NCBI GenBank assembly: GCA_947626795.1
Contig: CANQTH010000016.1
Location: 1 to 44,984 of the forward strand
DNA: 44,984 nt
Source: an uncultured Lachnospiraceae bacterium
GTDB taxonomy: Bacteria; Bacillota; Clostridia; Lachnospirales; Lachnospiraceae
Direction: 5' to 3'
In this document: in pieces, positions 215-27,981 of the stretch
Layout: each line of letters begins with the position of its first letter
Position numbering within the stretch: the first letter of the stretch is position 1
Position numbers and translations under genes: made by a program
The notes under the pieces: generated by a model
Databases searched by the model: none
Told to the model about the DNA's origin: nothing
The model's input: the letters and a program-made list of their open reading frames with translations, nothing else

Positions 215-934
215 ATGGCGAATGTGCCAACGCCACATATTGAGGCGAAAGAAGGGGATTTTGCGAAGACTGTATTGATGCCGGGGGATCCGCTGCGCGC
301 GAAATTTATCGCGGAGACGTATTTGGAGCAGCCCAGGTGCGTGAACCGGGTGCGCGGGATGCTGGGCTATACCGGGCGTTATAAGGGGAAAGAGATTTCT
401 GTCATGGGGTCAGGGATGGGAATGCCGTCCATCGGCATTTATTCCTATGAGCTGTTCCATTTTTACGATGTGGACAATATCATCCGGATCGGGTCGGCAG
501 GGGCGATCTTGGACGACGTGAACGTAATGGACGTCGTTATTGGGATGGGAGCCTCCATGGTGTCCGACTATGTGGGGCAGTTTGACTGCCCGGGGCATTT
601 CGCGCCGCTTGCGGATTATCATCTGTTAAGCACGGCGGTCGAAAGCGCGAAGGAGCTTGGGACTCCGGTCCGGGTGGGGAATATCCTTTCCGAGGACGCG
701 TTTTATACGGATCGGCCCAACAGCAAGGACTGCTTTCGCAAGATGGGCGTGCTGGCCGTGGAGATGGAGAGCGGCGCGCTGTACCTGAATGCGGCGCGGG
801 CGGGGAAGCGCGCGCTCTGCATCCTGACGATTTCGGACCATATCTATAAGCCGATGCAGCTCACGTCCGAGGAGCGCCAGACAGGATTTGGGAAAATGAT
901 CGAGATCGCGTTGGAGACGGCGCTGCGCGCCTGA
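215..934 (+). CDS. deoD: purine nucleoside phosphorylase, DeoD type
   Basis: Cytosolic enzyme of purine salvage that cleaves (deoxy)purine nucleosides with phosphate to free base and (deoxy)ribose-1-phosphate. The 239-residue product matches the usual length of the hexameric DeoD family. The N-terminal TPHIEAKEGDFAKTVLMPGD block, the GSGMGMPS phosphate-site region, the GSAGA segment and the VEMESGAL sugar-binding motif are all present, and the ISDH segment near residue 210 holds the general-acid Asp. An in-frame upstream extension to 152 exists, but the ATG at 215 follows AAGGAGG by eight bases and begins the conserved protein. The last codons and the stop lie inside a 77-bp tandem duplication. 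It converges on the CLC gene. Confidence 0.95.
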   Translation: MANVPTPHIEAKEGDFAKTVLMPGDPLRAKFIAETYLEQPRCVNRVRGMLGYTGRYKGKEISVMGSGMGMPSIGIYSYELFHFYDVDNIIRIGSAGAILDDVNVMDVVIGMGASMVSDYVGQFDCPGHFAPLADYHLLSTAVESAKELGTPVRVGNILSEDAFYTDRPNSKDCFRKMGVLAVEMESGALYLNAARAGKRALCILTISDHIYKPMQLTSEERQTGFGKMIEIALETALRA

Positions 935-1085
935 CTGCAGGCAGTTTCGGGGAGCGTGGCGCGCTTGGGAGCTGGCCGGGGTCGCCCCCGTGACGGCGTC
1001 TGCGCGCCTGACAGCGGGCAGCTTCGGGGAGCGTGGCGCGCTTGGGAGCTGGCCGGGGTCGCCCCCGTGACGGCGCTGCGCGCTT
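923..1085. repeat. 77-bp tandem duplication spanning the deoD stop codon
   Basis: Copy one (923-999) starts in the last codons of deoD and includes its TGA. Copy two (1000-1075) repeats it with a few substitutions, and a third copy starts at 1076 but runs directly into the 3' end of the convergent CLC gene. The duplication therefore fills the whole space between the two genes. No clear terminator with a T-run was found in it. Confidence 0.9.
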
Positions 1086-2349
1086 AGTGCGTCTTCCGAT
1101 TGATAAATTCCGCTTTGAATTTGGAATACATGATCTTCTGGCTGCTGTAGAGGCTGTAGTAGCCGGAGAGCATATATCCGATGGAAACGGCGAGCAGGTA
1201 GTAGGGGACGCCGCCCACTCCGAACAGCTCAAGGCTGACGAGCAGCGAGGAGATAGGGCAGTTGGTGACGCCGCAGAAGACGGCGGCCATCCCGGATGCT
1301 GCGCAGATCTTAGGGGCGAATCCGACGACGTTCCCGAACAGGCAGCCAAACGTCGCGCCGATGAAGAGGGACGGCACGATCTCCCCGCCCTTGTACCCGG
1401 CGCCTAAGGTGACGGCGGTGAACAGGATCTTCAGCAAAAAGGCGTAGGGGACGGTCTTTGCGGAAATGAAGCACCGTTCGATCACGGGCATCCCCGCTCC
1501 ATTGTAATCCTGGTTCCCGACGATCAGCGTGAGGATTAAGAGGATCGTTCCGCCGAAAAAGATACGGACGAACGGGTTGGGGAAGTATTTTTTGTACAGG
1601 CTCTCGCTCTTTTCGAGCGTCAGGCAGAAAAGCGTGCTGATCCCGGCGCAGAGGATGGCGAGGATGGCGACGCACGCTCCGGTCGCGAATGTGAATTTCG
1701 GGATGAACAAGATCGGGAACCGCTCGGGGGCGACGTGGAAATAGCTTGCGACGCCGTAGGCCGTCAGGGAGGAGACGACGCAGGGGACCAGGGCGGAATA
1801 ATACATGATGCCCACGCTTACGACTTCCATGGAAAAGATGGCGGCCGCGACGGGCGTGCCGAGCAGCGCGGAAAAGGCCGCGCTCATGCCGCACATGATG
1901 ATGATGTTCTGATCCTTGTCGTCGAGCCGGAACAGCTTCCCGATCGAAGCGCCGATGCTGCCGCCAAGCTGCAGGGCCGCGCCCTCGCGCCCGGCGGATC
2001 CGCCGAACAAGTGGGTGACGACGGTCGAGATGAAGATGAGCGGCGCGCGTTTTAACGGGATATGCCCCTCGGACTGGATGGCGGAGATGACGATGTTCGT
2101 CCCGGGATCCTTCTCGATGTGGGAGAGGCGGTAGAGGCCCACGATCAGAAGCCCCGCGAAGGGCAGGAGGAAGATCAGCCGCGGGCAGGCGGCCCGCGCG
2201 TCGGTCGCGTAAGACATACAGTAATGGAACAGCGTGCTCACGGAGCCTACGACAATTCCGGAAAAAAGGGAGAACACGACCCATTTCATGAAATAGAAGA
2301 GCCGTTTCATAATATGTAAGATAAAATTTGAGAAATATAGGGCGCCCAT
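1084..2349 (-). CDS. CLC-family anion/proton antiporter, CLC-F-like
   Basis: Integral membrane antiporter of 421 residues with about ten hydrophobic segments. The gating-glutamate motif appears as THLFGGSAGREGAALQLGG, and the third filter motif as YKGGEIVPSLFIGATFG. The first canonical motif (GSGIP, whose Ser coordinates chloride) is replaced by PGTNIV. From family knowledge, the THLFGGSAGREG and KGGE forms resemble the fluoride-exporting CLC-F branch more than chloride CLCs, so fluoride is a possible substrate; this is inference. The ATG at 2349 sits nine bases after AGGAGG on the reverse strand, while an upstream TTG at 2355 is too close to that site. No fluoride riboswitch was recognised upstream. 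It is convergent with deoD and divergent from the receiver gene at 2685. Confidence 0.85.
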   Translation of the reverse strand: MGALYFSNFILHIMKRLFYFMKWVVFSLFSGIVVGSVSTLFHYCMSYATDARAACPRLIFLLPFAGLLIVGLYRLSHIEKDPGTNIVISAIQSEGHIPLKRAPLIFISTVVTHLFGGSAGREGAALQLGGSIGASIGKLFRLDDKDQNIIIMCGMSAAFSALLGTPVAAAIFSMEVVSVGIMYYSALVPCVVSSLTAYGVASYFHVAPERFPILFIPKFTFATGACVAILAILCAGISTLFCLTLEKSESLYKKYFPNPFVRIFFGGTILLILTLIVGNQDYNGAGMPVIERCFISAKTVPYAFLLKILFTAVTLGAGYKGGEIVPSLFIGATFGCLFGNVVGFAPKICAASGMAAVFCGVTNCPISSLLVSLELFGVGGVPYYLLAVSIGYMLSGYYSLYSSQKIMYSKFKAEFINRKTH

Positions 2350-2423
2350 AAGCAAGATCCTCCTAAGCTGCCATTTTGTGATCGTTCAGCCTTGCGGCTT
2401 TCCTATTATGTCATTTCTACCAT

Positions 2424-2488
2424 AGCTTATACCACTTTTGGAAGTTTTTCAAGTAAGGCTTTTCATTTTTAGAATTATGGTGTATGAT
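2424..2488. promoter_or_regulatory. possible divergent promoters in the 335-bp gap 2350-2684
   Basis: On the reverse strand TTGAAA (2452-2447) precedes a weak TAAGCT or TATAAG -10 for the CLC gene. On the forward strand TTTTCA (2460-2465) lies 17 bases before TATGAT (2483-2488), pointing toward the first receiver gene. Both are only partial matches. The rest of the gap (2490-2684) is GC-rich and shows no feature I can support. Confidence 0.35.
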
Positions 2489-2684
2489 TGATATGACTGT
2501 ATCCATGCCCGGGAGGGCAGGGAACGTGCGCGGGCGCGCCTTTGTTTTCCGGGAAGCGCGGGCAGAGCGCTTCTTTCGGGAAGCGCAGGCAGGGGCTTCC
2601 TGCAGGGACGCGGCGGGGAACGCCATTTTTAGCGGGCGCGTCCGCGCGTGCGGCAGAATCAACATGGAAGGGCGTGATGGACCT

Positions 2685-3059
2685 ATGAAGACGATTTTAT
2701 TGATCGACGACAGCATGATACAGCTCCGGATCCTGCAGGGAATGCTGCGGCGGGACTACAATATCCTGATGGCGGCGTCGGGGTTTGAGGGGATCGAGAT
2801 GGCGAAGCAGAAGCAGCCGGATCTGATCTTATTGGATTACGATATGCCCGTGATGGGCGGGCGCGAGACGCTCAAGAACCTGCGGGACAGCGAGAAGACG
2901 CGGGAGATCCCGGTGATCTTCCTTACCGGGGTCGACGAGCGCAGGGAGATCGAGGCGGTCTTGAAGCTGCGTCCGCAGGGCTATCTGCTCAAGCCGGTGG
3001 AGCAGGATCGTCTGTTCGAGACGATCCGCAAGATATTAGGGAAAGCCGAAAAGTCCTAA
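2685..3059 (+). CDS. single-domain response regulator (CheY-like receiver)
   Basis: A 124-residue stand-alone REC domain with the full phospho-acceptor set: acidic pair D8-D9, phospho-Asp D51 in LLDYDMP, T81 and K103. It has no output domain, so it must act through protein contacts or as a phosphorelay intermediate. An open frame extends upstream to 2484, but the first 67 codons have no domain character and MKTILLIDD is the normal REC start; the ribosome site before 2685 is weak. It is followed by a second receiver and a hybrid kinase in the same direction. The 3' end, including a perfect 9-bp inverted repeat (3004-3026) and the stop, is tandemly duplicated downstream. Confidence 0.85.
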   Translation: MKTILLIDDSMIQLRILQGMLRRDYNILMAASGFEGIEMAKQKQPDLILLDYDMPVMGGRETLKNLRDSEKTREIPVIFLTGVDERREIEAVLKLRPQGYLLKPVEQDRLFETIRKILGKAEKS

Positions 3060-3153
3060 GGCCTCCGCGCCGGGGCAGGATCGTCTGTTCGAGACGATCC
3101 GTAAGATATTAGGGAAAGCCGAAAAGTCCTAAGGCCCCCGCGCCGGGGGCAGC
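3002..3153. repeat. 73-bp tandem duplication spanning the receiver stop codon
   Basis: Copies at 3002-3074 and 3075-3147 differ at only two positions, and a few bases of a third copy follow. Each copy has the last 19 codons of the receiver gene, its TAA, a GC-rich tail, and the inverted repeat GGATCGTCT/AGACGATCC. The second copy is non-coding relative to the gene. Confidence 0.95.
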
Positions 3154-3236
3154 CTGGAGTGGGCGGATCCCGCAGCGGGAAAGGCGCAGGGTTTAGCGGC
3201 TGCGGAAAGCGGGGCTTGCAGGCGGAAGGAGAAGAC

Positions 3237-3659
3237 ATGGAGCATACAGGCAGCGAGAAGCCGCGCGTCCTGATCGTGGATGACGTGGAAGGGCAGCGTT
3301 TCATATTGAGGAATATCATAATGGAGATGGGGTGCCAGCCTGTGCTGGCGGAGAGCGGCGCTCAGGCGCTCAAGATCTTTCCGCGGTGCGCCCCGCAGGT
3401 CGTCCTGCTGGACGTCGCCATGCCACAGATGGACGGGTATGCGGTGTGCAGGGCGCTGAAGGAAGACCCGCAGGCGAAGGACGTCCCGGTCCTGTTCGTG
3501 TCGGGTTTTGAGGACGAGGGCGAGATCGTGAGAGGTTTTGAGGCGGGCGGGGCGGACATTGTGCGCAAACCCTTCATACCGGAGGTCGTCAAGGCGCGCG
3601 TCGGCCTTCAGTTGGAGCTGGCCGCCGCCCGCAGGGAACTGGCCGGGAAGACGGCGTAG
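3237..3659 (+). CDS. single-domain response regulator
   Basis: A 140-residue receiver domain with D15-D16, phospho-Asp D59 in LLDVAMPQMDG, S89 and K111. A short Ala/Arg-rich helix follows the domain (residues 120-140). The ATG at 3237 follows GGAAGGAG by six bases; an upstream in-frame extension to 3159 lacks receiver character. It lies between the first receiver and a membrane hybrid kinase and probably shares their transcript. The receiver of the REC-HD-GYP protein at 13263 has a similar start (ILIVDDV near its N-terminus), suggesting related input. The codons for the last eight residues (RELAGKTA) and the stop are repeated twice more just downstream. Confidence 0.85.
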   Translation: MEHTGSEKPRVLIVDDVEGQRFILRNIIMEMGCQPVLAESGAQALKIFPRCAPQVVLLDVAMPQMDGYAVCRALKEDPQAKDVPVLFVSGFEDEGEIVRGFEAGGADIVRKPFIPEVVKARVGLQLELAAARRELAGKTA

Positions 3660-3793
3660 GGTGCGTATCCGCCGCCGTGCGTGTAGAGCGAATTACAGGG
3701 AACTGGCCGGAAAGACGGCGTAGGGCGCGTATCCGCCGCCGTGCGTGTAGAGCGAATTGCAGGGAACTGGCCGGGAAGACGGCGTAGGGCGCG
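3631..3793. repeat. 64-bp tandem repeat spanning a receiver stop codon
   Basis: Units start at 3631, 3695 and 3759; the first two are complete and the third covers about 35 bases. Each unit repeats the codons for ELAGKTA, a TAG stop and a tail holding GTATCCGCCGCCGTGCGTG. The array fills almost the whole gap before the hybrid kinase gene. Confidence 0.95.
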
Positions 3794-3826
3794 GGTCTGG
3801 AACGATACGGAACAGGAGATGGCAGG

Positions 3827-6595
3827 ATGGAAAAAGTGTTGCTTCCCGAGAGGGAGAAAGTGTCGATAGAGCGGAGCATGCTGGTATTTTATCTGATATA
3901 CAGCACGGTGCTGACCATTTTTACCATAAGGAGCGACTGGCCGATCTGGCTGGCGATCGGGACGGGCGTAAGCTGCCTGTTCGGATTCTTTTTTCATATG
4001 GCGCGGGTGCGGACGTATGAGTTCCGGGCCTGGTACGTGGCAAGCACGATGCAGATCAGCGTGATCTTCATGTCCATCTGCACGGCGAGTTATTCCATGA
4101 CGGTCCCGCTGCTCCTGGCGTTTACCGTGGCATATGCCATATACAGCATGCCGGAGCTGATCTACCTGTCGGTTGCCGGGACGACTTTTTTGAGCATTTA
4201 CCATATCTTCGTGGCGAAGAGCGTGAGCTTTGTCTCGGAGAAGACGGCGATCCAGACGGCGCTTGAGATCGTGTCCATTTATTTTTCACAGCACATCGTC
4301 TTCATTATCATCAAGAAGCGGCTGGACAACATCAAGAGCCAGCAGCAGACGATCCTGTCTTTGCAGGACGCAGAACACAGCAAGGACGATTTCCTGGCGA
4401 ATGTCAGCCATGAGATCCGCACTCCGGTCAACACCATCTGCGGGATGAGCGAGATCGTGCTGCGCGAGGACCTGGCGGAAGGGGTGCGCGCCGACATTTT
4501 CAGCATCCAGGCGGCCGGGCGCAACCTGCTCTCCATTGTCAGCGACGTTTTGGACTTTACGGAGATGCAGTCCGGGAAAATGACGCTGGCCGAGGAGTCG
4601 TATAACATCACGTCGACGCTGAACGACATCATCAATATGTCGATGGCGCGCATCAGCGGGAAGCGGCTGGAGCTGATCGTAGACTGCGACGCCGGGATCC
4701 CGAGCGGGTTGGCGGGAGACGAGCAGAAGATCCGGCGCGTCATCATGAACCTCGTGAACAACGCATTGAAATTCACGGTGGAGGGCTGCGTCAGCCTGCA
4801 GATCTCGTCGCGCCGGACGGAATACGGGATCAACCTGATCGTGTGCGTGAAGGACACGGGGATCGGGATGGATGAGGAGAGCCTGGAAAAGCTGTTCACA
4901 AGCTTTAACCAGGTGGACACCAGGCGCAACCGCCAGGAGGGCGGGATAGGGCTTGGGCTCGCCATCTCCCAGGCGATCGTCGACATGATGGGGGGCTTCA
5001 TCATGGCGTCGAGCAAGCTGGGCAAGGGCAGCGAGATCCAGTTCACCATCCCGCAGAAGGTAGTGGACGATACGCCGATCGCGGCGCTGCGCGACCCGGA
5101 GAGCGTCAACGTCGCGGTCTACATCGACATGGAGACGTACGACCGTCCGGACGTCCGGGAGGAATATGGGCGCGTGATCGTCCATATGATCAGCCAGCTC
5201 CGCGTGAGGTGCCATGTCTGCCAGAACCTGGCGGAATTAAAGCACAGGGCGCAGCGCGAGACGTTTACCCATATTTTCATCAGCATAGAAGAATATGAGG
5301 AAGACAGCGGATATTTTGACGGGCTGTCTAAGACGTCGAAGGTCATCGCCGTCATTGACCGCCTGAACGACGTGCGGATCGCGAACAGGGACATCCTGCG
5401 CCTGTATAAGCCGTTTTTCATCCTTCCGGTCGTCATGGTCTTAAACGACGAGAAGCTCGTACAGGGGATGGACACGTCTTATTATTACCGCGGGCGGTTC
5501 GTCGCGCCGGACGTGAACGTGCTGCTCGTGGACGACAACCTGATGAATATCCGCGTGCTGGAAGGGCTGCTCGCCCCCTATCAGGTCAAGGTGGCGATGG
5601 CGACAAGCGGCGCGGAGGCATTGGAAAAGATCGATTCCATGGAATACGACGCCGTGTTCTTAGACCACATGATGCCGGAGATGGACGGGATCGAGACGCT
5701 CCACCGCATCCGGCAGAAGCAGGGGAATTATTTCAAGAAGATCCCGATCGTCGCGGTGACGGCGAACGCGGTCGGCGGCATGCGCGAGGTGTACTTGAAC
5801 GAAGGCTTCCAGGACTTCATGGCGAAGCCGATCGAGATGTCCGTCTTAGACCGCGTGCTGCGCAGGAACCTGCCGCAGGAAAAGCTCGTCCCGGTCGAGG
5901 AGGACGAGGCCGCGCGGGAAGAGGCGGCGGAGTCTGTAAAAGCGCAGGAAACAGAGAAGAAGGAAGCCGCGCCGCGTAAGACGGACCTGCCCGCAGACCG
6001 CTTCGACGAGGAGGCGGGCGTGAAGTACTGCGGCGGGTTTGACAATTACATCCGCATCCTGCAGATCAACAGCGAGAGCGGCGAAGAGGAAAAGGACAAG
6101 ATCCAGGCGTGCTTCGATCAGAAAGACTGGAAGAATTATACGATCTTTGTGCATGCGCTGAAAAGCACGATGCGCAGCATCGGCGTGGAGAAGCTTTCCG
6201 CCATGGCAAAAGAGCTGGAACAGGCCGGGAAGCAAGGCAGGGAGGACTATATCCTGGAGAACCATAGCGCGATGATGGAAGAGTACGCGCAGATCCTGGA
6301 ACTGCTCAAAAAGAGCGAGACGGTCTGCCCGCAGGATAAGGAAGAAGGCGCGGAAGGGCTGGAAGCGCTGGACGAGGCGGACATGGACCGGCTCTCGCTG
6401 GAATTTGAGGACGCGGCCTATGCGTTCGACGGCGACCAGATGAACATCATCGCGGAATATCTGATGGAATGCAGCTACAAGGGGCATCCCCTTAAAAAAC
6501 ATTTGGAGCCGATCGCGCGCAAGATCGAGATGATGGATTACTTATCCGCGGCGGAAGCCGTGTCGCGGCTCAAGGACAAATGGAAGGAACCGTAA
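3827..6595 (+). CDS. membrane hybrid histidine kinase (6TM-HisKA-HATPase-REC-Hpt)
   Basis: A 922-residue sensor kinase. Residues 15-165 hold about six membrane segments with no sizeable extracellular loop. HisKA has the phospho-His at H195 (SHEIRTP). The ATPase has NLVNNALKFT (308-317), DTGIGM (343-348) and GLGLAIS (375-381). Residues 425-545 form a degenerate receiver-like segment. A true REC follows at 563-680 with D613, and an Hpt domain near 770-830 has H776 in FVHALKS, so an internal His-Asp-His relay is possible. Residues 840-922 are unassigned. The ATG follows AGGAG by eight bases. The TAA lies within a dispersed-repeat copy. Final targets may be the neighbouring lone receivers. Confidence 0.92.
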   Translation: MEKVLLPEREKVSIERSMLVFYLIYSTVLTIFTIRSDWPIWLAIGTGVSCLFGFFFHMARVRTYEFRAWYVASTMQISVIFMSICTASYSMTVPLLLAFTVAYAIYSMPELIYLSVAGTTFLSIYHIFVAKSVSFVSEKTAIQTALEIVSIYFSQHIVFIIIKKRLDNIKSQQQTILSLQDAEHSKDDFLANVSHEIRTPVNTICGMSEIVLREDLAEGVRADIFSIQAAGRNLLSIVSDVLDFTEMQSGKMTLAEESYNITSTLNDIINMSMARISGKRLELIVDCDAGIPSGLAGDEQKIRRVIMNLVNNALKFTVEGCVSLQISSRRTEYGINLIVCVKDTGIGMDEESLEKLFTSFNQVDTRRNRQEGGIGLGLAISQAIVDMMGGFIMASSKLGKGSEIQFTIPQKVVDDTPIAALRDPESVNVAVYIDMETYDRPDVREEYGRVIVHMISQLRVRCHVCQNLAELKHRAQRETFTHIFISIEEYEEDSGYFDGLSKTSKVIAVIDRLNDVRIANRDILRLYKPFFILPVVMVLNDEKLVQGMDTSYYYRGRFVAPDVNVLLVDDNLMNIRVLEGLLAPYQVKVAMATSGAEALEKIDSMEYDAVFLDHMMPEMDGIETLHRIRQKQGNYFKKIPIVAVTANAVGGMREVYLNEGFQDFMAKPIEMSVLDRVLRRNLPQEKLVPVEEDEAAREEAAESVKAQETEKKEAAPRKTDLPADRFDEEAGVKYCGGFDNYIRILQINSESGEEEKDKIQACFDQKDWKNYTIFVHALKSTMRSIGVEKLSAMAKELEQAGKQGREDYILENHSAMMEEYAQILELLKKSETVCPQDKEEGAEGLEALDEADMDRLSLEFEDAAYAFDGDQMNIIAEYLMECSYKGHPLKKHLEPIARKIEMMDYLSAAEAVSRLKDKWKEP

Positions 6596-6790
6596 GGATA
6601 CGAAGATTCAGCCAGGAGGGAATCCGCAGGGCTGAGCTGTCAGGTAACAGGGAATCCGCAGGGCTGAGCTGTCAGGTAACAGGGAATCCGCAGGGCTGAG
6701 CTGTCAGGTAACAGGGAATCTGCAAGGCTGGGCTGTCAGGTAAGAAGGTAACAGGGAATCCGCAAGGCTGAGCTGTTACGTAAGAAGGGA
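6591..6790 (+). repeat. dispersed palindromic repeat copy with 32-bp internal amplification
   Basis: The left end (CCGTAAGGATACGAAGATTC) matches the dispersed repeat family described at 33512-33636. Inside it a 32-bp unit with AATCCGCAGGGCTGAGCTGT is repeated five times (AATC at 6621, 6653, 6685, 6717 and 6757), the last copy displaced by an 8-bp insertion. The TAA of the preceding kinase gene is part of the element's own CCGTAAGG sequence. The array separates the two hybrid kinase genes. Confidence 0.85.
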
Positions 6791-6795
6791 AAGGC

Positions 6796-9507: not shown

Positions 9508-9561
9508 TAGGATAGGCAAAAACTGTTACGGCAAACAGGAGAGAAAAAGGAGGGAACTGGA

Positions 9562-10281: not shown

Positions 10282-10298
10282 GGCGGGACGACGCGCGC

Positions 10299-10345: not shown

Positions 10346-10396
10346 CGCGGGCAACGAGCCAGGCGGACGTCGTCCATTTGGCGACTGCCGCGCGGA

Positions 10397-10880: not shown

Positions 10881-10955
10881 CGGGGTGTGGCTCAGCTTGG
10901 CTAGAGCGCCTGGTTTGGGACCAGGAGGCCGCAGGTTCGAATCCTGTCACCCCGA
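10881..10955 (+). tRNA. tRNA-Pro (anticodon TGG)
   Basis: The acceptor stem CGGGGTG/CACCCCG, the D stem GCTC/GAGC, the anticodon stem CCTGG/CCAGG with loop TTTGGGA, and a T arm with TTCGAAT fold normally. The discriminator base is A. The CCA end is not encoded, which matches the CCA-adding enzyme at 26582. Confidence 0.95.
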
Positions 10956-10958
10956 GAC

Positions 10959-11029
10959 GCGGGTGTAGTTCAATGGCAGAACACCAGCCTTCCAAGCTGG
11001 ACACGTGGGTTCGATTCCCATCACCCGCT
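10959..11029 (+). tRNA. tRNA-Gly (anticodon TCC)
   Basis: The acceptor stem GCGGGTG/CACCCGC, the D stem GTTC/GAAC, the anticodon stem CCAGC/GCTGG with loop CTTCCAA, and a T loop TTCGATT are present. It is 71 bases long with discriminator T and no encoded CCA. It lies three bases after tRNA-Pro. Confidence 0.95.
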
Positions 11030-11031
11030 GT

Positions 11032-11105
<74 letters not shown>

Positions 11106-11112
11106 CTTTTAT

Positions 11113-11187
11113 GGTGGGTATAGCGCAGCTGGTTAGCGCGCCAGATTGTGGCTCTGGAGGCCCAGGGTTCGAATCCCTGTATCCACC
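11113..11187 (+). tRNA. tRNA-His (anticodon GTG)
   Basis: The acceptor stem GTGGGTA/TATCCAC is extended by the extra G at the 5' end (11113), the His identity element, which faces the C discriminator at 11187. The anticodon stem CCAGA/TCTGG carries loop TTGTGGC. No CCA is encoded. Confidence 0.95.
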
Positions 11188-11231
11188 TTTCCGCAACGGG
11201 TCTTAGGAAAAGTACCGATCCTTGCAGCTAT

Positions 11232-11303
11232 TGGGCTATCGCCAAGCGGTAAGGCACAGGACTTTGACTCCTGCATTCGCTGGTTCAAATCCAGCTAGCC
11301 CAG
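11232..11303 (+). tRNA. tRNA-Gln (anticodon TTG)
   Basis: The acceptor stem TGGGCTA/TAGCCCA, the anticodon stem CAGGA/TCCTG with loop CTTTGAC, and a T arm GCTGG/CCAGC with loop TTCAAAT are present. The discriminator is G and no CCA is encoded. Confidence 0.95.
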
Positions 11304-11393
11304 CTATATGTGGGACGTTATGATCCCAGGCGGGAGCGCGCAGGACGCGCGTCCCGGAAATAAAGTGGGCAAGCCCACTTCAGCCTTTACCCC

Positions 11394-11415
11394 CCCCTCA
11401 GTTTTGAGGGGTTTG
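11394..11415 (+). terminator. probable terminator of the five-tRNA transcript
   Basis: CCCCTCA pairs with TTGAGGGG around a very short loop and is followed by TTTG. A separate palindrome (AGTGGGC/GCCCACT) lies just before it at 11364-11379. The stretch 11304-11470 shows no coding feature. Confidence 0.55.
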
Positions 11416-11470
11416 CTGTCTTATCGGCAAAGCGTCCCGGAAGGCCGCCGCGCCGGGGGACGGTTCTTAT

Positions 11471-11550
11471 GCGGATGTGGCGGAACTGGCAGACGCGCCA
11501 GACTTAGGATCTGGTGGGAGACCGTGCAGGTTCGATTCCTGTCATCCGCA
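11471..11550 (+). tRNA. tRNA-Leu (anticodon TAG)
   Basis: The acceptor stem GCGGATG/CATCCGC, the anticodon stem CCAGA/TCTGG with loop CTTAGGA, and the T arm with TTCGATT are present. The variable arm is short for a leucine tRNA. The discriminator is A and a run of seven T follows, which may end the transcript. It is separated from the other five tRNAs by 167 bases. Confidence 0.93.
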
Positions 11551-14433: not shown

Positions 14434-15246
14434 GTGATTACAGAGCAGGAGTTTCAGAGGATAGCGGTTTTCGTGAAAAATCAGTATGGGATCAACCTTG
14501 CCGGCAAGCAGATCCTCGTGAACGGGAGATTGAAGAATTACCTTCTGCGGAACGGCTACAGCGGGTACGACGAGTATATGTCGAAGGTGGAAGCGGATCC
14601 TTTTGGGGAAGCGGCCCGCAGCCTGGTGAACGCCCTGACGACGAACCACACCTATTTCATGCGGGAATTTGAGCATTTTGAATATATGCGGCGGGTGATC
14701 CTCCCGCAGCTAAAGGCGTCGGAGGCGGCAACGAGGGACCTGCGCATCTGGTCCGCGGCGTCCTCCACGGGGGAGGAGCCTTACACGATCGCGATGGTGC
14801 TGAAGGATTTTTTCGGGATGGAACACAGGCTTTGGGACACGAAGGTGCTTGCGACCGACCTTTCCACGAAGGTCTTGCAGCACGCGCAGCGCGGGGTCTA
14901 CTTGGGGGAGCAGATCGAGCCTTTGCCGGAAAAATGGCGCAGGCGGTACTTTAAGCAGATCAACGAGCTGGAGTACCAGGTGCGGCAGGAGCTGAAGGAC
15001 GAGGTGCTGTTCCGGCAGTTCAACCTGATGAACCCCCTGCCGTTTCGGAAGCCGCTCCATATCGTATTCCTTCGGAATGTCATGATCTATTTTGACGAGA
15101 AGACGAAGCTCGCCCTTTTGAACCGGATTTATGACAAGATAGCCCCGGGGGGCTACCTGTTCGTCGGGACGACGGAGTCGGTGGACCGGAGGGGGACGCC
15201 GTTCCAGTACATCGAGCCTTCCATCTATCGGAAAGAGAAGGGATGA
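14434..15246 (+). CDS. cheR: chemoreceptor glutamate methyltransferase CheR
   Basis: S-adenosylmethionine-dependent enzyme that methylates glutamates of chemoreceptors. The 270-residue product has the N-terminal helical CheR domain (1-75), then the methyltransferase fold with LRIWSAASSTGEEPYTIAM (103-121), VLATDLSTKVL (138-148) and FLRNVMIYFD near residue 215. The GTG start at 14434 follows AGGAG by seven bases. It is the first gene of the cheR-cheB-cheY-cheA-cheW-mcp run. The only receptor in the window is encoded at the end of the run. The 3' end with the stop codon is partly duplicated 69 bases downstream. Confidence 0.95.
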   Translation: MITEQEFQRIAVFVKNQYGINLAGKQILVNGRLKNYLLRNGYSGYDEYMSKVEADPFGEAARSLVNALTTNHTYFMREFEHFEYMRRVILPQLKASEAATRDLRIWSAASSTGEEPYTIAMVLKDFFGMEHRLWDTKVLATDLSTKVLQHAQRGVYLGEQIEPLPEKWRRRYFKQINELEYQVRQELKDEVLFRQFNLMNPLPFRKPLHIVFLRNVMIYFDEKTKLALLNRIYDKIAPGGYLFVGTTESVDRRGTPFQYIEPSIYRKEKG

Positions 15247-15320
15247 CCCGCGCGGCGCGCTCAATTGGGCGTCCGGGGGCGGGGATGCCGCATCGACCGG
15301 AAAGAGAAGGGATGACCCGC
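15229..15320. repeat. 69-bp-spaced duplication of the cheR 3' end
   Basis: The 23 bases around the cheR stop (15229-15251) recur exactly at 15298-15320, including GGAAAGAGAAGGGATGACCC. The 46 bases between the two copies have diverged or were inserted. The second copy leads into the cheB ribosome site. Confidence 0.9.
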
Positions 15321-19128: not shown

Positions 19129-19131
19129 GCC

Positions 19132-19632: not shown

Positions 19633-19670
19633 GCGGAAAATAATGGAGACAGGCTAAGGAGGAAAAAGAA

Positions 19671-21029: not shown

Positions 21030-21108
21030 GAAGTGACGGAAAGACGCTGTGGGGCATTGGGAAATGCGGGGCCATGGCGTTTTTCCATGGCAAGGCGGGA
21101 GGACAGGC

Positions 21109-22443: not shown

Positions 22444-22455
22444 GAGGAAAAGGGC

Positions 22456-23103: not shown

Positions 23104-23117
23104 CGGGAGGTGATCGC

Positions 23118-23681
23118 TTGCAGACGGCATTGGGATTGGATGGGGAGATCCTGCTTTGGATCCAGGAATTTCTCCGGATCGGATGGCTGGACCCGGTCGT
23201 GAAGGCGGTCACGCACCTGGGGGACGGCGGCTTTGTCTGGATCCTGCTCGCCGTTCTCTTCCTGCTGGACAAAAGGCGGCGGAAGACCGGGGCGTGCATG
23301 GCGGCCGCGCTGTTGCTTGGCTTTTTGGCGACGAACCTGATCCTGAAGAACGCGGTCATGCGCCCGCGCCCTTATTACGGGGTGTCGGGATTGCGCGCGC
23401 TGGTGACGGACCCGAGCTGGTCGTTCCCGTCCGGGCATTCCACCAGCTCCATGGCGGCGGGTGTCGTGATGTTCCGCCAATTGGAGCCGCGCTGGCAGGG
23501 GAGGTGCGCGCTTGCTTTCGCGGTGATCGTCTGCCTTTCCAGGCTGTATGTGGGCGTCCATTACCCGTCGGACGTCGTCTGCGGGGCGGCGGTCGGGATC
23601 GCCGCGGCCGTGTGCGCGATGCGCCTTGTGGGGCGCGCCTGGCCGGAGGGCGGGCCGACGGAAGGATGGCGGGAAGACTAG
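23118..23681 (+). CDS. PAP2-family membrane phosphatase
   Basis: A 187-residue membrane phosphatase, possibly acting on undecaprenyl pyrophosphate or another lipid phosphate. The three PAP2 signatures are complete: K77-x6-R84-P85, PSGH (104-107) with H107, and S141-R142-x5-H148-x3-D152. Four or five membrane segments surround them. The start is a TTG at 23118 preceded by GGGAGGTGA. It follows ktrA by 14 bases and precedes the DUF1653 gene by 24, so it looks like part of one transcript although its function is unrelated. Confidence 0.88.
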   Translation: MQTALGLDGEILLWIQEFLRIGWLDPVVKAVTHLGDGGFVWILLAVLFLLDKRRRKTGACMAAALLLGFLATNLILKNAVMRPRPYYGVSGLRALVTDPSWSFPSGHSTSSMAAGVVMFRQLEPRWQGRCALAFAVIVCLSRLYVGVHYPSDVVCGAAVGIAAAVCAMRLVGRAWPEGGPTEGWRED

Positions 23682-23705
23682 AAAAGACAGAAAGAAGGAG
23701 ACAGT

Positions 23706-24557
23706 ATGCCACAGGGAAATCCCAGACCGGGGGAATTGTACTTGCATTTTAAGCAGAAGCTGTACCAGGTTGTGACGGTCGCGGAACAAACGGAGACAGG
23801 AGAGAGGCTCGTCGTCTACCAGGCGCTGTACGGGGCGTTCCGGACGTATGCGCGCCCGTACGACTCGTTTGTTGGCCCGGTGGACCGGAAAAAATATCCG
23901 GACGCGAGGCAGAGGTACCGCTTCCAGCTTGTGGAGCGGAAAGGCGCGGGAAATCCGCCTGCGGAGCCAGGAAAAGAGGTGGCGCCGCCGGAAGGAACGC
24001 CGCCGGAAGCGTGGCGCGGGAAAGAGCCGGAGAGCGCGCCGCCGGAAGCGTGGCGCGGGAAAGGTCCGGAGAGCGCGCCGCCGGAAGCGTGGCGCGGGAA
24101 AGGTCCGGAGAGCGCGCCGCCGGAAGCGGGACGCGGGAAAGAGCCGGAGAGCGCGCCGCCGGAAGCGTGGCGCGGGAAGGTGTCGGGAGGAGCGTTGGAA
24201 GCAGCGGGGCGCAGGAAAGCGCCGGAAGCGGGACGAGGAAAAGCGCCGGAAGGAACGCCGCTGGAAGCGTGGCGCGGGAAAAAGCCGGAGAGCGCGCTGC
24301 CGGGAGCCGGGGCGTCCGAAGAGGAGTTGAACCGTTTCCGGGAAGAAAAAATGATGGAGTTCCTGGATGCGGAGACGATGGAGGAAAAGTACAAGATCCT
24401 GCTGGAGATGGAAGGCTGCATAACGGATCGGATGATCAACAATCTTGCGGTCGCGCTCGACGTCGTCGTGAAGGAGGGGCCGCTGGACTTACGGTACGAG
24501 GAGCTGAAGGTCTGCATCCGCACGTTCCAACGGTATGAGATCAGCCGCTTGCGGTGA
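23706..24557 (+). CDS. DUF1653 protein with in-frame minisatellite
   Basis: A 283-residue soluble protein. Residues 6-78 match the DUF1653 pattern (PRPGELYLHFKQKLYQV, ERLVVYQALYGAFRTYARP, KYPDARQRYRF). Residues 98-165 consist of five copies of a 13-residue repeat of the form PPEAWRGKGPESA, and related degenerate repeats run to about 205. Residues 210-283 form a helical C-terminal domain (EEELNRFREEKMMEFLDAET) of unknown role. The ATG follows GAAGGAG. Last gene of the ktrB-ktrA-PAP2 run. The repeat segment is probably a flexible linker. Confidence 0.85.
   Translation: MPQGNPRPGELYLHFKQKLYQVVTVAEQTETGERLVVYQALYGAFRTYARPYDSFVGPVDRKKYPDARQRYRFQLVERKGAGNPPAEPGKEVAPPEGTPPEAWRGKEPESAPPEAWRGKGPESAPPEAWRGKGPESAPPEAGRGKEPESAPPEAWRGKVSGGALEAAGRRKAPEAGRGKAPEGTPLEAWRGKKPESALPGAGASEEELNRFREEKMMEFLDAETMEEKYKILLEMEGCITDRMINNLAVALDVVVKEGPLDLRYEELKVCIRTFQRYEISRLR
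24000..24194. repeat. 39-bp in-frame minisatellite in the DUF1653 gene
   Basis: Five near-identical 39-bp copies start at about 24000, 24039, 24078, 24117 and 24156, each with GCCGGAAGCGTGGCGCGGGA or a close variant. The unit is a multiple of three, so copy changes keep the reading frame. Degenerate copies continue to about 24300. Confidence 0.93.
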
Positions 24558-24566
24558 CGGGGGAAC

Positions 24567-24701
24567 GATTCAGCCTTCGGCTTCACAGTTACGGAATCCG
24601 GCTCATTTCAAGTTTGCCTTCGGCAAAGAGCCGGATTTCCGCTCGGCAAAATTTATATGTTTTTACGGACTTTGCAGCAAGTGCAAAGTCCTGGGCTGAA
24701 T
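24567..24701 (-). repeat. dispersed palindromic repeat, reverse orientation
   Basis: A 135-bp copy of the family described at 33512. Its ends pair (ATTCAGCC with GGGCTGAAT). Inside are a large hairpin GGAATCCGGCTC/GAGCCGGATTTCC enclosing TTTGCC/GGCAAA, and a second hairpin ACTTTGCA/TGCAAAGT. It lies between the DUF1653 stop and the small transcription unit, in the 661-bp gap 24558-25218. Confidence 0.85.
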
Positions 24702-24734
24702 GGCTGCGATGGGGGCGTAAGGGAGGATTTCCCC

Positions 24735-24763
24735 TTGCGAAATCCCATCCTTGCGTTTATAAT
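24735..24763 (+). promoter_or_regulatory. sigma-A-type promoter of a small transcription unit
   Basis: TTGCGA (24735-24740) is 17 bases before a perfect TATAAT (24758-24763). A terminator follows 142 bases later with no gene of normal size between, so this promoter appears to serve a short RNA. Confidence 0.7.
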
Positions 24764-24769
24764 GATTGA

Positions 24770-24962
24770 AAAAGATACGGGAGGATATCATGAGCGGGAT
24801 CAGAACATATATTTGGAGGGTATGAAGAGCGATCTGAAATGGCAGCAAGCGGACAGGGGATAGGGCTGTCCTATTTTGGATCACAAGATCACAGGAAACG
24901 AAGAACACTTATCTTTCACGACAGGGCGATCATCTGTCGGGAAAGGTAAGTGTTTTTTATTC
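24770..24962 (+). ncRNA. candidate small RNA of about 190 nt with two micro-ORFs
   Basis: The unit is bounded by the promoter at 24735-24763 and the terminator at 24905-24962. The sequence between can form TCAGA/TCTGA enclosing CATAT/GTATG, and GGACAG/CTGTCC. The 5' bases GAAAAAGATA could also pair with TATCTTTC in the terminator's left arm. Two tiny ORFs are present: 24790-24825 (MSGIRTYIWRV), with GGGAGG upstream, and 24822-24863 (MKSDLKWQQADRG), overlapping it by ATGA. It might be a regulatory RNA or encode small peptides. I recognise no known RNA family. NlpC/P60 downstream has its own promoter. Confidence 0.45.
24905..24962 (+). terminator. strong rho-independent terminator
   Basis: AACACTTATCTTTC pairs with GAAAGGTAAGTGTT, and an inner CGACAG/CTGTCG stem closes the loop. 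A run of six T follows. It ends the small unit that starts at 24770. The stretch 24963-25100 holds only a doubtful 25-codon ORF (24988-25065). Confidence 0.9.
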
Positions 24963-25101
24963 CCGCGGGCAATGAGGAAAATAGCCATGCTTGCATGGAT
25001 ATTTGACGAATGCCGCGAGGGCCAAATGACACTGGAAGAAAAAGAGAAAGGAAAAAAGTTTTAGCGCAGCCGTTTTCTATAGCTCTTTCGGAGAGAGAAG
25101 G

Positions 25102-25130
25102 TTGCCACAAAGGGGCAATCGTGGTATACT
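25102..25130 (+). promoter_or_regulatory. sigma-A promoter of the NlpC/P60 gene
   Basis: TTGCCA (25102-25107) and TATACT (25125-25130) are 17 bases apart, 89 bases before the ATG. The promoter lies in an upstream extension of the same frame, which argues for the ATG at 25219 as the start. Confidence 0.75.
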
Positions 25131-25218
25131 TGAAGATGACAAGGCGCAGGGACGCGGCAGGGCGGCGTGGGACCGTTCTGTGCGGCGGCCTTGGGGCATA
25201 GGCGCAAAGGAGGCAGTC

Positions 25219-26523
25219 ATGAAGAGGAAGAAGGTAACGGCGGCGCTGTTGGCGATAGCGGTCGGATGCACGCAGTTTTCTACCGTTTTGGCGGATCGGA
25301 AATCCGACGCGGAGCAGAAGAAGCAGGAGGCGGAAGCAGGCCTGGAGTCGAAGCAGGGCGAGATTGACGCGATCGAGCAAAAGCAGGAGGAGCTGCAGGG
25401 CGAGATCAACGCCCTGGATGCGGAGCTTGTGAACGTCATGATCGAGCTGTCCACATTGGAAGAGGAGCTGGCGGTCAAGCAGGACGAGCTGGAGCAGACG
25501 AAGGCGGACCTAAAGCAGGCGAAGAAAGATGAGAAGAGCCAGTATGAGGCGATGAAGCTCCGCATCCGGTTCATGTATGAGAAGGGCGGGACGGAGATGC
25601 TCACGAGCATCCTGGAGTCCGGGAGCATCGCGGACATGCTCAACCGTGTGGAATATGTGAATGAAGTATATGATTACGACAGGGACCTGCTGACGAAGTA
25701 TAAGAATACCAAGAAGCAGGTGGCGCAGCTAAAGAAGCAGCAGGAAGAGGAAGTGGCGGCCTTAGAGTCCAAGCAGAAGGAATACCAGGTGGCGCGCGAG
25801 AATTACGAGACGACGATCGAGCAGAAGAAAGGCGAAGTCGCGGATTTTGACACGAAGCTGGCGGCCGCGCAGGAGCTTGCGGCCGAGTACCAGGATACCA
25901 TCAACGCCCAGAATACGATCATTGCGGAGGAAAATGAGCGGATCGAGCGGGAACGCCGGGAACGCGAGGCGGCGGAAGCGGCCGCGGCGGCTGCGCGCGA
26001 GCGGGCGGCCAGGGAAGCCGCGGAGCGCGCGAGCATCGTGGCGGCGAACGAAGGTTCTGAATCCGGGGAAAGCTCTGTGGAAAAAGGGAACGACGGCGGC
26101 TCCGAGGACGGGGGCAGTTCCGACGGATCGGGCGGCGGCTCGAACGAGGAAGCGAAGGATCCGGGCTACCGCACGGGCGTGAGCGGGAGCGACGTGGTCA
26201 ATTACGCGCTGAGCTTCGTGGGCAACCCCTATGTCTGGGGCGGGAAAGACCCGAATACCGGGGCGGACTGCAGCGGCTTTACCAGCTATGTCTATGCGCA
26301 TTTCGGGATCAGCATCCCAAGCTATTCCTATTCCCAGCGGTCGGTGGGTCAGGAAGTGAGCTACAGCAAGGCCAGGGCGGGGGACTTGATCTGCTATTCC
26401 GGGCATGTCGCGATCTATATGGGGAACGGGCAGATCGTCCATGCCAAGGGTACGGCGTATGGGATCGTCGCGTATGACAGCGCGACCTACCGCCCGATCA
26501 TCACGGTACGCAGGGTCCTGTAG
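25219..26523 (+). CDS. secreted coiled-coil NlpC/P60 peptidoglycan hydrolase (CwlO/PcsB-like)
   Basis: A 434-residue exported protein. Residues 1-25 are a signal peptide (basic MKRKK, hydrophobic core, cleavage near VLA-D). Residues 27-300 form a long coiled coil typical of CwlO/PcsB proteins, which in relatives is controlled by FtsEX. A Gly/Ser-rich linker (305-325) leads to the NlpC/P60 cysteine peptidase domain (330-434), with C351 in GADCSGFTSYVY, H396 in GHVAIYMGNG and H408 in IVHAKG as the likely catalytic residues. It should cut peptide stems of peptidoglycan outside the membrane. The ATG follows AAAGGAGG by six bases. Confidence 0.93.
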   Translation: MKRKKVTAALLAIAVGCTQFSTVLADRKSDAEQKKQEAEAGLESKQGEIDAIEQKQEELQGEINALDAELVNVMIELSTLEEELAVKQDELEQTKADLKQAKKDEKSQYEAMKLRIRFMYEKGGTEMLTSILESGSIADMLNRVEYVNEVYDYDRDLLTKYKNTKKQVAQLKKQQEEEVAALESKQKEYQVARENYETTIEQKKGEVADFDTKLAAAQELAAEYQDTINAQNTIIAEENERIERERREREAAEAAAAAARERAAREAAERASIVAANEGSESGESSVEKGNDGGSEDGGSSDGSGGGSNEEAKDPGYRTGVSGSDVVNYALSFVGNPYVWGGKDPNTGADCSGFTSYVYAHFGISIPSYSYSQRSVGQEVSYSKARAGDLICYSGHVAIYMGNGQIVHAKGTAYGIVAYDSATYRPIITVRRVL

Positions 26524-26581
26524 GCGGGAAGGTTTGCGGCAGAGCGGCCGTAAGGCTTTGCTGTCACGATAGGAGCGCGAG

Positions 26582-27898
26582 ATGACGATACACTTACCAG
26601 AAAAAGTGAGGCATATCATTGGTACTTTGGAGGGCGCGGGCTTTGAGGCCTATGCCGTGGGGGGATGTGTGCGCGATTCCCTGCTGGGGCGGGAGCCGGA
26701 GGATTGGGACGTCACGACCTCGGCGCTTCCCGGCCAGGTCAAGCGGCTTTTCCCGAGGACGGTCGACACAGGAATCCGGCACGGCACGGTGACTGTGCTG
26801 GAAGGCCGGGAAGGGTTTGAAGTGACGACTTACCGGATCGACGGGGAATACGAGGACAAGCGTCACCCGCGGGAAGTCACGTTCACCCCGGATCTTCTGG
26901 AGGATCTGAAACGCAGGGATTTCACGATCAACGCCATGGCGTATAACGATGCGAAGGGGCTGGTGGATGCGTTCGGCGGCATCCGCGACATAAAGAGAAG
27001 ATCTGTGCGCTGCGTCGGAAGCCCCCGGGAGCGTTTTACGGAAGACGCGCTTCGGATGATGCGGGCCGTCCGTTTCAGCGCGCAGCTTGGGTTCCCCATC
27101 GAGGGCGGGACGAAGGAAGCGATCCGGCCGCTCGCGAAGAACCTGGCGCAGATCAGCGCGGAGCGCATACAGTCAGAGCTTGTGAAGCTGTTAGTCTCGG
27201 ATCACCCGGAGGAAATGCGCACAGTGTATGAGACAGGCATGAGCCAGGTGTTTTTGCCGGAATTTGACGCGATGATGGACACGCCTCAGAATAATAAGCA
27301 CCATTGCTATAACGTGGGGGAGCATACGCTCGTCGCGCTCGGCCATGTGAGGAAGGATAAGGTCCTGCGCCTGACGATGCTTTTGCATGACGTGGGCAAG
27401 CCCGTGTGCAAGAGCGTCGGGGAGGACGGGATCTATCATTTTTACGGGCATCCCGAGACGGGGGCGCAGATGGCGCGCGGCATCCTGCGCCGCTTAAAAT
27501 TCGACAACGCGACGATCCGGCGCGTGACTGCGCTGATCACCTGGCACGACGACAGGCCGCCGATCGAGGAGCGCGCCATCCGGCAGGCCATTTACCGGAT
27601 CGGGGAGGAGCAGTTCCCGGATCTGTTCGAAGTAAAGCGCGCGGACGCGCTGGCGAAGAACCTCTACAAGCGGGAGGAAAAGCTTGCGTATATCGCGTCT
27701 TATGAGGCGATGTACCGGGAGATCCTGGAAAAAAAGCAGTGCCTCAGCTTAAGGGGGCTTGCGCTGGACGGAAGCGACTTGATCCGGATGGGCATGAAGC
27801 CGGGCAAGGAGATCGGGGAGGCGCTTGAACGCCTGCTCATGCACGTCCTGGAATGTCCGGAAGACAACAACGCGGACGCTTTGCGCCGCCTGCTGTGA
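26582..27898 (+). CDS. cca: CCA-adding tRNA nucleotidyltransferase with HD domain
   Basis: Adds or repairs the 3' CCA end of tRNAs. The 438-residue product is a class II nucleotidyltransferase. It has YAVGGCVRDSLLG (24-36), the metal-binding D41/D43 in EDWDVTT, and RRDFTINAMAYN as the nucleotide-selection block, followed by helical neck and body domains. The HD domain has LLHDVGKP (H269-D270). The enzyme is needed here because none of the six tRNA genes encodes CCA. The ATG follows AGGAG by four bases. The last codons and stop are duplicated 66 bases downstream. Confidence 0.95.
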   Translation: MTIHLPEKVRHIIGTLEGAGFEAYAVGGCVRDSLLGREPEDWDVTTSALPGQVKRLFPRTVDTGIRHGTVTVLEGREGFEVTTYRIDGEYEDKRHPREVTFTPDLLEDLKRRDFTINAMAYNDAKGLVDAFGGIRDIKRRSVRCVGSPRERFTEDALRMMRAVRFSAQLGFPIEGGTKEAIRPLAKNLAQISAERIQSELVKLLVSDHPEEMRTVYETGMSQVFLPEFDAMMDTPQNNKHHCYNVGEHTLVALGHVRKDKVLRLTMLLHDVGKPVCKSVGEDGIYHFYGHPETGAQMARGILRRLKFDNATIRRVTALITWHDDRPPIEERAIRQAIYRIGEEQFPDLFEVKRADALAKNLYKREEKLAYIASYEAMYREILEKKQCLSLRGLALDGSDLIRMGMKPGKEIGEALERLLMHVLECPEDNNADALRRLL

Positions 27899-27981
27899 CC
27901 GGGGAGGCCGGGCGTTCCACATCTTCTGCTGCGGCATTAGGATACGATGCGCCGCCTGCTGTGACCGGGGAGGCCGGGCGT
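27882..27981. repeat. 66-bp duplication spanning the cca stop codon
   Basis: Positions 27882-27915, covering the last codons (RRLL), the TGA and 18 bases of tail, recur at 27948-27981 with identical sequence, including GCGCCGCCTGCTGTGACCGG. A 32-bp spacer separates the copies. It fills the start of the 326-bp gap 27899-28224. Confidence 0.92.

What the first reader, a model, noticed from the sequence alone, without database searches (positions are those of the whole stretch)
923..27981. Recurrent tandem duplications that include the stop codon of unrelated genes
Seen: deoD (77 bp), two receivers (73 and 64 bp), cheR (69-bp spacing) and cca (66-bp spacing) each have their last codons plus the stop repeated downstream. 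Unit sizes cluster at 64-77 bp although the sequences are unrelated. Two further genes (kinase at 3827, pgcA) have arrays starting at or right after the stop. The repeated choice of gene ends suggests a process or selection linked to 3' ends, such as RNA end formation, transcription-replication conflict, or tolerance of slippage only where it does not break the frame.
Basis: seen in the sequence. Interest (0 to 1): 0.78.

Follow-up and report, generated by a model that had tools for sequence, protein, structure and literature searches.

The report
Spacer-sized DNA insertions at gene ends
Many of the repeats at gene ends in this gut bacterium look like the result of small pieces of DNA, some of them traceable to the cell's own chromosome, being inserted next to stop codons with a duplicated stretch of about 34 bases, much as CRISPR immune memories are written but outside the CRISPR array.

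Summary
All five named arrays are present. In a 1.25-Mb sample (43%) of this Lachnospiraceae genome, tandem arrays outside genes span a stop codon 28 times and a start once.

"Tandem duplication" is often not the best description. Local direct repeats show a common A-B-A unit. A is 31-38 bp (mostly 34-36, perfect in 10 of 28) and lies at or near a stop; B is a 28-39-nt insert (one of 21). There are 28 such non-coding events in the sample; no single event inside a gene has A of 33-36 (0 of 28). In 1.30 Mb from 80 other loci there is one. Seven of 29 B have a full or nearly full-length match elsewhere in the same genome, one 36/36. So short fragments were inserted with about 34 bp of target duplication; recombination between A copies can then give A-B-A-B-A.

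The closest known process is off-array CRISPR spacer integration; the genome has two Cas1-Cas2 modules. Against it: the duplication equals neither own repeat (33, 36), no TTC PAM at six sources, no hairpin preference. Insertion with duplication is well supported; the enzyme is inferred.

The parts
916..1083 (+). deoD gene-end array, unit 77 bp x2.2, includes stop codon 932-934; third copy only 14 bp
3002..3148 (+). receiver-1 gene-end array, unit 73 bp x2.0, includes the stop (ends 3059); no third A copy, so plain tandem duplication is possible here
3632..3793 (+). receiver-2 gene-end array, the clearest A-B-A-B-A case in the window: A = 34 bp (three copies; stop 3657-3659 in the first), B = 30 nt (two copies)
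6617..6788 (+). 32-bp x4 array (with a related 40-bp unit at its end) beginning 21 bp after the stop of the hybrid kinase (3827-6595)
15229..15320 (+). cheR gene end: A = 23-bp perfect repeat containing the stop, spacing 69, B = 46 nt (outside the core size range)
27882..27990 (+). cca-like gene end: A up to 43 bp (with mismatches) containing the stop, spacing 66, single A-B-A (outside the core size range)
32593..32777 (+). 60-bp x3.1 array starting at the base after the stop of the gene at 30859-32592
1..142 (+). 65-bp array at the contig start; bases 39-115 (77 bp) are identical to the last 77 bases of contig C11, so the assembly seems to have broken in this array and its true copy number is unknown

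Best explanation
Many gene-end repeats of this genome began as insertion of a short captured DNA fragment (B, mostly 28-39 nt) into a site whose roughly 34 bp (A) were duplicated, giving A-B-A. When A contains the stop codon or lies just after it the gene stays whole, so such events survive; events inside genes are lost. The process works like spacer integration by the CRISPR adaptation integrase Cas1-Cas2 acting outside its array, at least in part on fragments of the cell's own chromosome. Shown: A-B-A anatomy, size distribution, rarity elsewhere, gene-end bias, chromosomal matches for some B. Inferred: order of events, selection as filter, expansion by recombination, and the enzyme.
For: Non-coding A-B-A events: A 31x2, 33x1, 34x8, 35x6, 36x6, 37x2, 38x3; B 21-39, 27 of 28 between 28 and 39; A perfect in 10 of 28. 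Single non-coding events peak at A = 34-36 (18 of 56), while 0 of 28 single events inside genes has A of 33-36. Perfect A of 34 (5), 35 (2) and 36 (1 at spacing 72) fit a 34-bp duplication plus chance extension; perfect repeats of other lengths also occur (24x3, 25x2, 29, 31x2, 57, and a 36 at spacing 128). B matches elsewhere in the own genome over its full or nearly full length in 7 of 29: 36/36 (C28:6907, from C1:16369), 36/37 (C13:256, from C44), 35/37 (C12:7792, from C14), 33/35 (C14:33937, from C7), 35/36 with one gap (C12:38767, from C37), 29/33 (C9:23656, from C11), 31/36 (C23:10407, from C102). In the three cases measured the flanks of B and source do not match. Own CRISPR: type I-C operon with cas4-cas1-cas2 and 60 repeats of 33 nt, and a type III-like locus (RAMP genes; cas10 not tested) with cas1-cas2 and 70 repeats of 36 nt; spacers 32-39 with one of 44; 21 of 28 B lie in 32-39. 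Rarity: one canonical non-coding event in 1.30 Mb from 80 loci; in 1.31 Mb from 20 other genus members, apart from CRISPR arrays, the same locus again in G009 plus one weak event in G013 (4 of G013's 16 rows were not printed), against 28 in 1.25 Mb here. The two comparison sets overlap. Gene-end bias: 13 of 26 events hold a stop in A v. 11.1% of gene-compatible random windows, P = 1e-6; strictest null 11 of 23 v. 24.8%, P = 0.014; within 25 bp of a 3' end 18 of 23 v. 33.5%, P = 1.4e-5.
Against: The duplication (mode 34) equals neither own repeat length (33, 36). Seven of 28 B are shorter than any own spacer (one of them, 21 nt, is in a composite array dropped later). No TTC PAM next to B in six sources read by eye. 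Canonical spacers differ from B: GC 0.42-0.43 v. 0.57, and 0 of 128 match the own sample, though lethal autoimmunity could explain that. Inverted repeats are not centred in A; an earlier energy difference compared unequal lengths and is not used. Only 7 of 29 B have a source. With in-sample data alone the excess over controls is modest: 3 of 29 B v. 212 of 3000 non-coding 35-mers with any full-length match, v. 69 of 3000 overlapping a called gene (P = 0.03, although one of the three B sources lies outside called genes), v. 48 of 3000 with sharp ends (P = 0.012). Most control matches probably come from the dispersed 145-bp element (inference). The cheR, cca, receiver-1 and deoD repeats of the window do not fit the 34-bp rule well, and two clean events have A of 31.
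Confidence: 0.5

Rival explanations
1. Plain tandem duplication (replication slippage or unequal recombination at microhomology), seen mainly at gene ends because a duplication there leaves the protein intact.
For: Receiver 1 (period 73, 2.0 copies) and C7:29237 (93 bp, 2.0 copies) are tandem units with almost no third A. Arrays inside genes have periods divisible by three in 45 of 45, so selection on frame is strong.
Against: Single A-B-A events have one B only, with A clustered at 34-36 bp; slippage gives no fixed overlap. B matches a distant place in the genome in 7 of 29, 36/36 in one. Comparable DNA of relatives has almost none.
Confidence: 0.25
2. An unknown process unrelated to CRISPR: repair of breaks with about 34-nt staggered ends, with a short filler copied or captured from the chromosome (template switching or end joining).
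For: Host-like GC of B (0.57) and chromosomal matches; duplication length matches neither own CRISPR repeat; no TTC PAM in six sources.
Against: It has to explain both a stagger near 34 and a filler near 34; I know of no such repair process (recall). The genome does hold two Cas1-Cas2 modules.
Confidence: 0.2
3. A mobile short repeat family (REP- or MITE-like) that inserts near gene ends.
For: The genome carries a dispersed intergenic element of about 145 bp (92 hits, 42 of at least 120 bp). Some arrays are built from it (C1:17775, C4:35028; C28:18888 and parts of C13:7617, by eye).
Against: None of the 16 stop-spanning units of the first sample matched another place in the 445 kb searched at E <= 1e-3, and B inserts of the first 22 core events share no long sequence with each other.
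Confidence: 0.03
4. Assembly artefact of short-read repeats.
For: The genome is a 144-contig draft and contig C16 begins inside an array with a 77-base overlap to the end of C11.
Against: Copies differ by point changes (TRF match 84-98% in 15 of 16 arrays); a single A-B-A has no repeat as long as 77 bases; A lengths cluster; other drafts of the genus lack them.
Confidence: 0.02

Closest known systems
Off-array (non-canonical) spacer integration by Cas1-Cas2 (Nivala, Shipman and Church 2018, Nat Microbiol; text not held; seen only as a reference in PMC11687729, PMC9456107 and PMC11788318; its content is recalled)
   Same: Spacer-sized fragment, target duplicated to a repeat-sized direct repeat, sites outside the CRISPR array, cas1-cas2 present
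   Different: Here 28 events in 43% of one natural genome, concentrated at gene ends, some inserts host-derived, duplication of 34 rather than the own repeat lengths; A-B units appear amplified in tandem
Canonical CRISPR arrays of the same genome (type I-C on C82, type III-like on C13)
   Same: Repeat-spacer-repeat layout, period about 65-75; tandem-duplicated identical spacers occur in the C13 array too
   Different: The gene-end A is a different native sequence at each site; B has host GC and some host matches, canonical spacers 0 of 128 in the sample
Casposon or transposon target-site duplication
   Same: Insertion flanked by a direct repeat of target DNA
   Different: No shared insert sequence; insert only about 34 nt; casposase duplications are about 14-15 bp (recalled)
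Ordinary bacterial tandem duplications or VNTRs
   Same: Head-to-tail copies that differ by point changes
   Different: Clustered A and B sizes and, in several cases, a B from elsewhere

Membership tests
Off-array CRISPR spacer integration | Insert of spacer length | tested here: inconclusive
   B 21-39, 21 of 28 in 32-39; own spacers 32-39 with one of 44
Off-array CRISPR spacer integration | Target present as a direct repeat of repeat-like length on both sides of the insert | tested here: met
   A 31-38 bp, mode 34, perfect in 10 of 28
Off-array CRISPR spacer integration | Duplication length equal to the repeat length of a resident system | tested here: not met
   Mode 34 v. 33 (I-C) and 36 (type III-like)
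Off-array CRISPR spacer integration | cas1 and cas2 in the same genome | tested here: met
   Two modules
Off-array CRISPR spacer integration | Inserts come from another locus or DNA molecule | tested here: met
   7 of 29 inserts match elsewhere in the genome over full or nearly full length; controls are modest; the other 22 have no source
Off-array CRISPR spacer integration | PAM beside the source (TTC for type I-C; none needed for type III; both recalled) | tested here: not met
   0 of 6 sources, flanks printed, read by eye
Off-array CRISPR spacer integration | Target resembles the repeat (inverted repeat) | tested here: not met
   Loop of best stem in A in 6 of 28, 7.8 expected
Off-array CRISPR spacer integration | Events depend on Cas1-Cas2 | not testable with these tools
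   Cas1 in 14 of 29 genus genomes; too little DNA sampled in other carriers to test association
Plain tandem duplication | Unit is a copy of contiguous local sequence | tested here: not met
   Not met for the A-B-A events whose B matches elsewhere; possible for receiver 1 and deoD; undecided for events without a source
MITE or REP element | Inserts or units share sequence across loci | tested here: not met
   0 of 16 stop-spanning units in the first sample and the B of 22 core events; a few arrays outside these sets do contain the dispersed element

The most novel reading that the evidence does not exclude
A natural genome in which the CRISPR adaptation machinery, or an unknown integrase like it, has written dozens of spacer-sized fragments, many of them host-derived, at gene ends (about 60-65 per genome if the sample is typical). 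Because these copies are probably not read as guides, they would keep a record of the raw fragment pool that autoimmunity removes from the real arrays, and they reshape the 3' ends of many genes.
Probability: 0.4. Interest if true: 0.85.

Novelty: new variant of a known kind. Interest (0 to 1): 0.72.

Why it matters
If right, spacer-like integration outside CRISPR arrays is not only a rare laboratory side effect but can be a main source of small insertions in a natural genome, with a visible preference for gene ends. It would give a readable record of which DNA fragments the adaptation machinery handles before selection, a route to new CRISPR arrays, and a source of new 3' untranslated regions. 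If the enzyme is not Cas1-Cas2, a new class of short-fragment integration is at work.

Tried and rejected
Hairpin targeting: a fold-energy difference at the sites did not survive a positional test; the control windows were shorter and not matched for GC, so I do not use it. Site motif: only a weak purine preference at the right end of A, 0.74 v. 0.61 nearby. Viral origin of AT-rich inserts: 25-26-nt cores of three B, exact match only, 0 hits each in viral contigs. A search of PLSDB with a relative's CRISPR contig gave no match and tells nothing. Empty sites in relatives: in the 110 nt printed after the stop, no second A and no B is visible by eye at the C14:33937 gene in 6 of 13 loci that aligned, nor at the C7:25542 gene in 8 of 12; the others did not align there, and downstream sequence has diverged too far for a strict test. 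The window loci have few orthologues. Association with Cas1 across the genus: too little DNA sampled in other carriers. Rows dropped before counts: 8 events inside genes (36 to 28), then 2 composite short-unit arrays (C1:69317, C1:74109; 28 to 26); the CRISPR arrays on C13 and C82 were masked but C13's was not. One indel-rich array (C2:38744) fits no simple A-B reading.
Full report
WHAT WAS CHECKED. TRF and direct reading confirm every array named in the finding. The window is G000:C16:1-44984 of a 2.89-Mb draft in 144 contigs. Named relatives by deoD include Eubacterium sp. isolate S35_Bin1 (93%), Petralouisia muris (92%) and Eubacterium sp. 14-2 (91%); that these are mouse-gut Lachnospiraceae is partly recall. 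Pfam supports the names deoD-like, receivers, hybrid kinase, cheR and cca-like; pgcA was not tested.

IS IT MORE THAN CHANCE. I wrote a simple gene caller and ran TRF on 829,846 bp of the genome. Forty-five arrays lie inside genes, all with periods divisible by three. Outside, 23 span a stop, 1 a start, 1 both, 32 are intergenic (6 rows of these are a CRISPR array) and 2 overlap partly. Random placement gives stops and starts about equally (482:523 and 308:310 in two sets of 2000). With the sample enlarged to 1.25 Mb and the CRISPR loci left out the counts are 28 stop, 1 start, 1 both, 39 intergenic, 3 partial and 66 inside (P = 1e-7 for stop v. start). Stop arrays have a median period of 71.

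ANATOMY. Printed in the orientation of the gene (16 arrays), many stop-spanning arrays end shortly after a copy of the stop, with about 2.5 copies: A-B-A-B-A, where A is the gene tail with its stop and B a spacer. A search for local direct repeats that does not need two full copies found many single A-B-A events. In the 1.25-Mb sample 36 events have A 30-39, spacing 58-80 and B 20-42; 8 lie inside genes and are dropped, leaving 28. Their A lengths are 31x2, 33x1, 34x8, 35x6, 36x6, 37x2 and 38x3; B runs from 21 to 39; A is perfect in 10 of 28. Of 56 single non-coding events of any size 18 have A of 34-36; of 28 single events inside genes none has A of 33-36. The lengths fit a target duplication of about 34 bp with chance matches at the edges; two clean events with A of 31 show that it is not rigid.

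ORIGIN OF B. The B inserts of the first 22 events are unrelated to each other, and 0 of 16 stop-spanning units of the first sample recur elsewhere in it. Searched against the whole own genome, 22 B and 7 more gave seven full or nearly full-length matches elsewhere: C28:6907 (36/36; source C1:16369-16404, by eye the end of a ribosomal S11-like gene with its stop), C13:256 (36/37, C44, inside a reading frame), C12:7792 (35/37, C14, inside a called gene), C14:33937 (33/35, C7, inside a called gene), C12:38767 (35/36 with one gap, C37, inside a called gene), C9:23656 (29/33, C11, inside a called gene) and C23:10407 (31/36, C102, by eye just after a tRNA-Asn-like gene). Two weaker partial matches exist (C1:57449, C9:15814). 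Controls in the local sample: full-length matches for 3 of 29 B, 0 of 29 A, 6 of 1500 coding and 65 of 1500 non-coding 35-mers; for 212 of 3000 non-coding 35-mers near gene ends, 69 of them overlapping a called gene; with sharp ends 48 of 3000 v. 3 of 29 B (P = 0.012). Non-coding DNA thus has a background of repeats, and the case for B rests on the near-perfect, sharply bounded matches. For those at least, local duplication cannot be the origin.

RARITY. The same search in 1.30 Mb from 80 loci (mostly Clostridia, some of the same genus) finds five events: three inside genes, one intergenic with B of 50, and one canonical event over a stop (L072). In 1.31 Mb from 20 other genus members it finds 2 in G009 (one the same locus as L072, one in a CRISPR array), 16 in G013 and none in the other 18. 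Only 12 of the 16 G013 rows were printed, all in the L248 CRISPR arrays; one search shows one weak event outside them, L251:19901 (A 35, B 30). G004, G005 and G025 have none in 200, 200 and 260 kb. The two comparison sets overlap. Most relatives were sampled in only about 20 kb.

WHY GENE ENDS. Of 26 events (two composite arrays dropped) 13 have a stop inside a copy of A, against 11.1% of random 34-bp windows that would leave genes whole (P = 1e-6). Limited to well-called contigs and leaving out windows just upstream of starts it is 11 of 23 v. 24.8% (P = 0.014), and 18 of 23 v. 33.5% lie within 25 bp of a 3' end (P = 1.4e-5). Tolerance explains the lack of events inside genes and part of the bias; a residual preference for the first bases after genes remains, whose cause is open. 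Hairpins do not explain it.

MECHANISM AND KINSHIP. A spacer-sized fragment inserted with a repeat-sized duplication, taken from arbitrary DNA, is what Cas1-Cas2 does. The genome has a type I-C operon (cas5, csd1/cas8c, cas7, cas4, cas1, cas2; 60 exact 33-nt repeats, spacers 32-37) and a type III-like locus (two RAMP genes tested, cas1, cas2; 70 repeats of 36 nt, spacers 32-39 and one of 44). The latter array itself holds tandem-duplicated identical spacers, the same kind of growth as A-B-A-B-A. Integration outside arrays is in print: the 2018 Nivala paper I saw only as a reference. In PMC9456107 I read passages saying that non-canonical integration occurs near IHF-like motifs in vivo and that integration in vitro favours an inverted repeat; in PMC13034035 a passage on frequent off-target integration by a type V-C Cas1. 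Against membership: 34 is neither 33 nor 36, seven of 28 B are shorter than any own spacer, no TTC beside six sources, no palindrome preference, and B has host GC (0.57) where canonical spacers have 0.42-0.43 and 0 of 128 self matches in the sample. The last difference is expected if self-targeting guides are lethal only in the array, but it also fits a non-CRISPR process. I therefore say that it works like off-array spacer integration, and do not file it as a proven member.

WINDOW LOCI. Receiver 2 is a clear A-B-A-B-A (34/30). cheR (23-bp A) and cca (43-bp A with mismatches) are single A-B-A outside the core size range, perhaps eroded. deoD and receiver 1 are tandem units without a full third A and may be plain duplications. 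Copy numbers may be underestimates, since the contig itself seems to break in such an array.

NOVELTY. I saw no report of this pattern in the listings; several listings were cut (15 of 317, 12 of 118, 20 of 26), one search found nothing, and the library lacks most subscription papers. I rate it a new variant of a known kind.

Noticed in passing
window 24569-24700 and 27994-28108: Copies (95% and 72%) of a dispersed intergenic element of about 145 bp with inverted ends (GTAACAGTTCAGCC); 92 hits, 42 of at least 120 bp, in 1.25 Mb; MITE-like. Some tandem arrays are built from it (C4:35028, C1:17775).
   Followed up: partly
L189 (G000:C13:27916-33110) and L214 (G000:C82:472-4460): Two large CRISPR arrays, type III-like (70 matched repeats; by eye the last repeat base comes in blocks of T, G, then C) and type I-C (60 repeats).
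   Followed up: partly
window 23986-24289, 30423-30644, 38132-38217, 44163-44307: Arrays inside called genes; in the 830-kb sample all 45 such arrays have periods divisible by three.
   Followed up: no
window 10881-11550: Cluster of six tRNA genes.
   Followed up: no
L015 and L016 (G000:C6:1-40000): GC ranges from 0.60 down to 0.36 along the stretch and my caller misses many long ORFs there; probably an acquired island.
   Followed up: no
L319 and L320; L326: The insert at C28:6907 is an exact copy of what reads by eye as the end of a ribosomal S11 gene with its stop; the insert at C23:10407 resembles the sequence just after a tRNA-Asn-like gene. Neither identification was tested by a tool.
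   Followed up: partly
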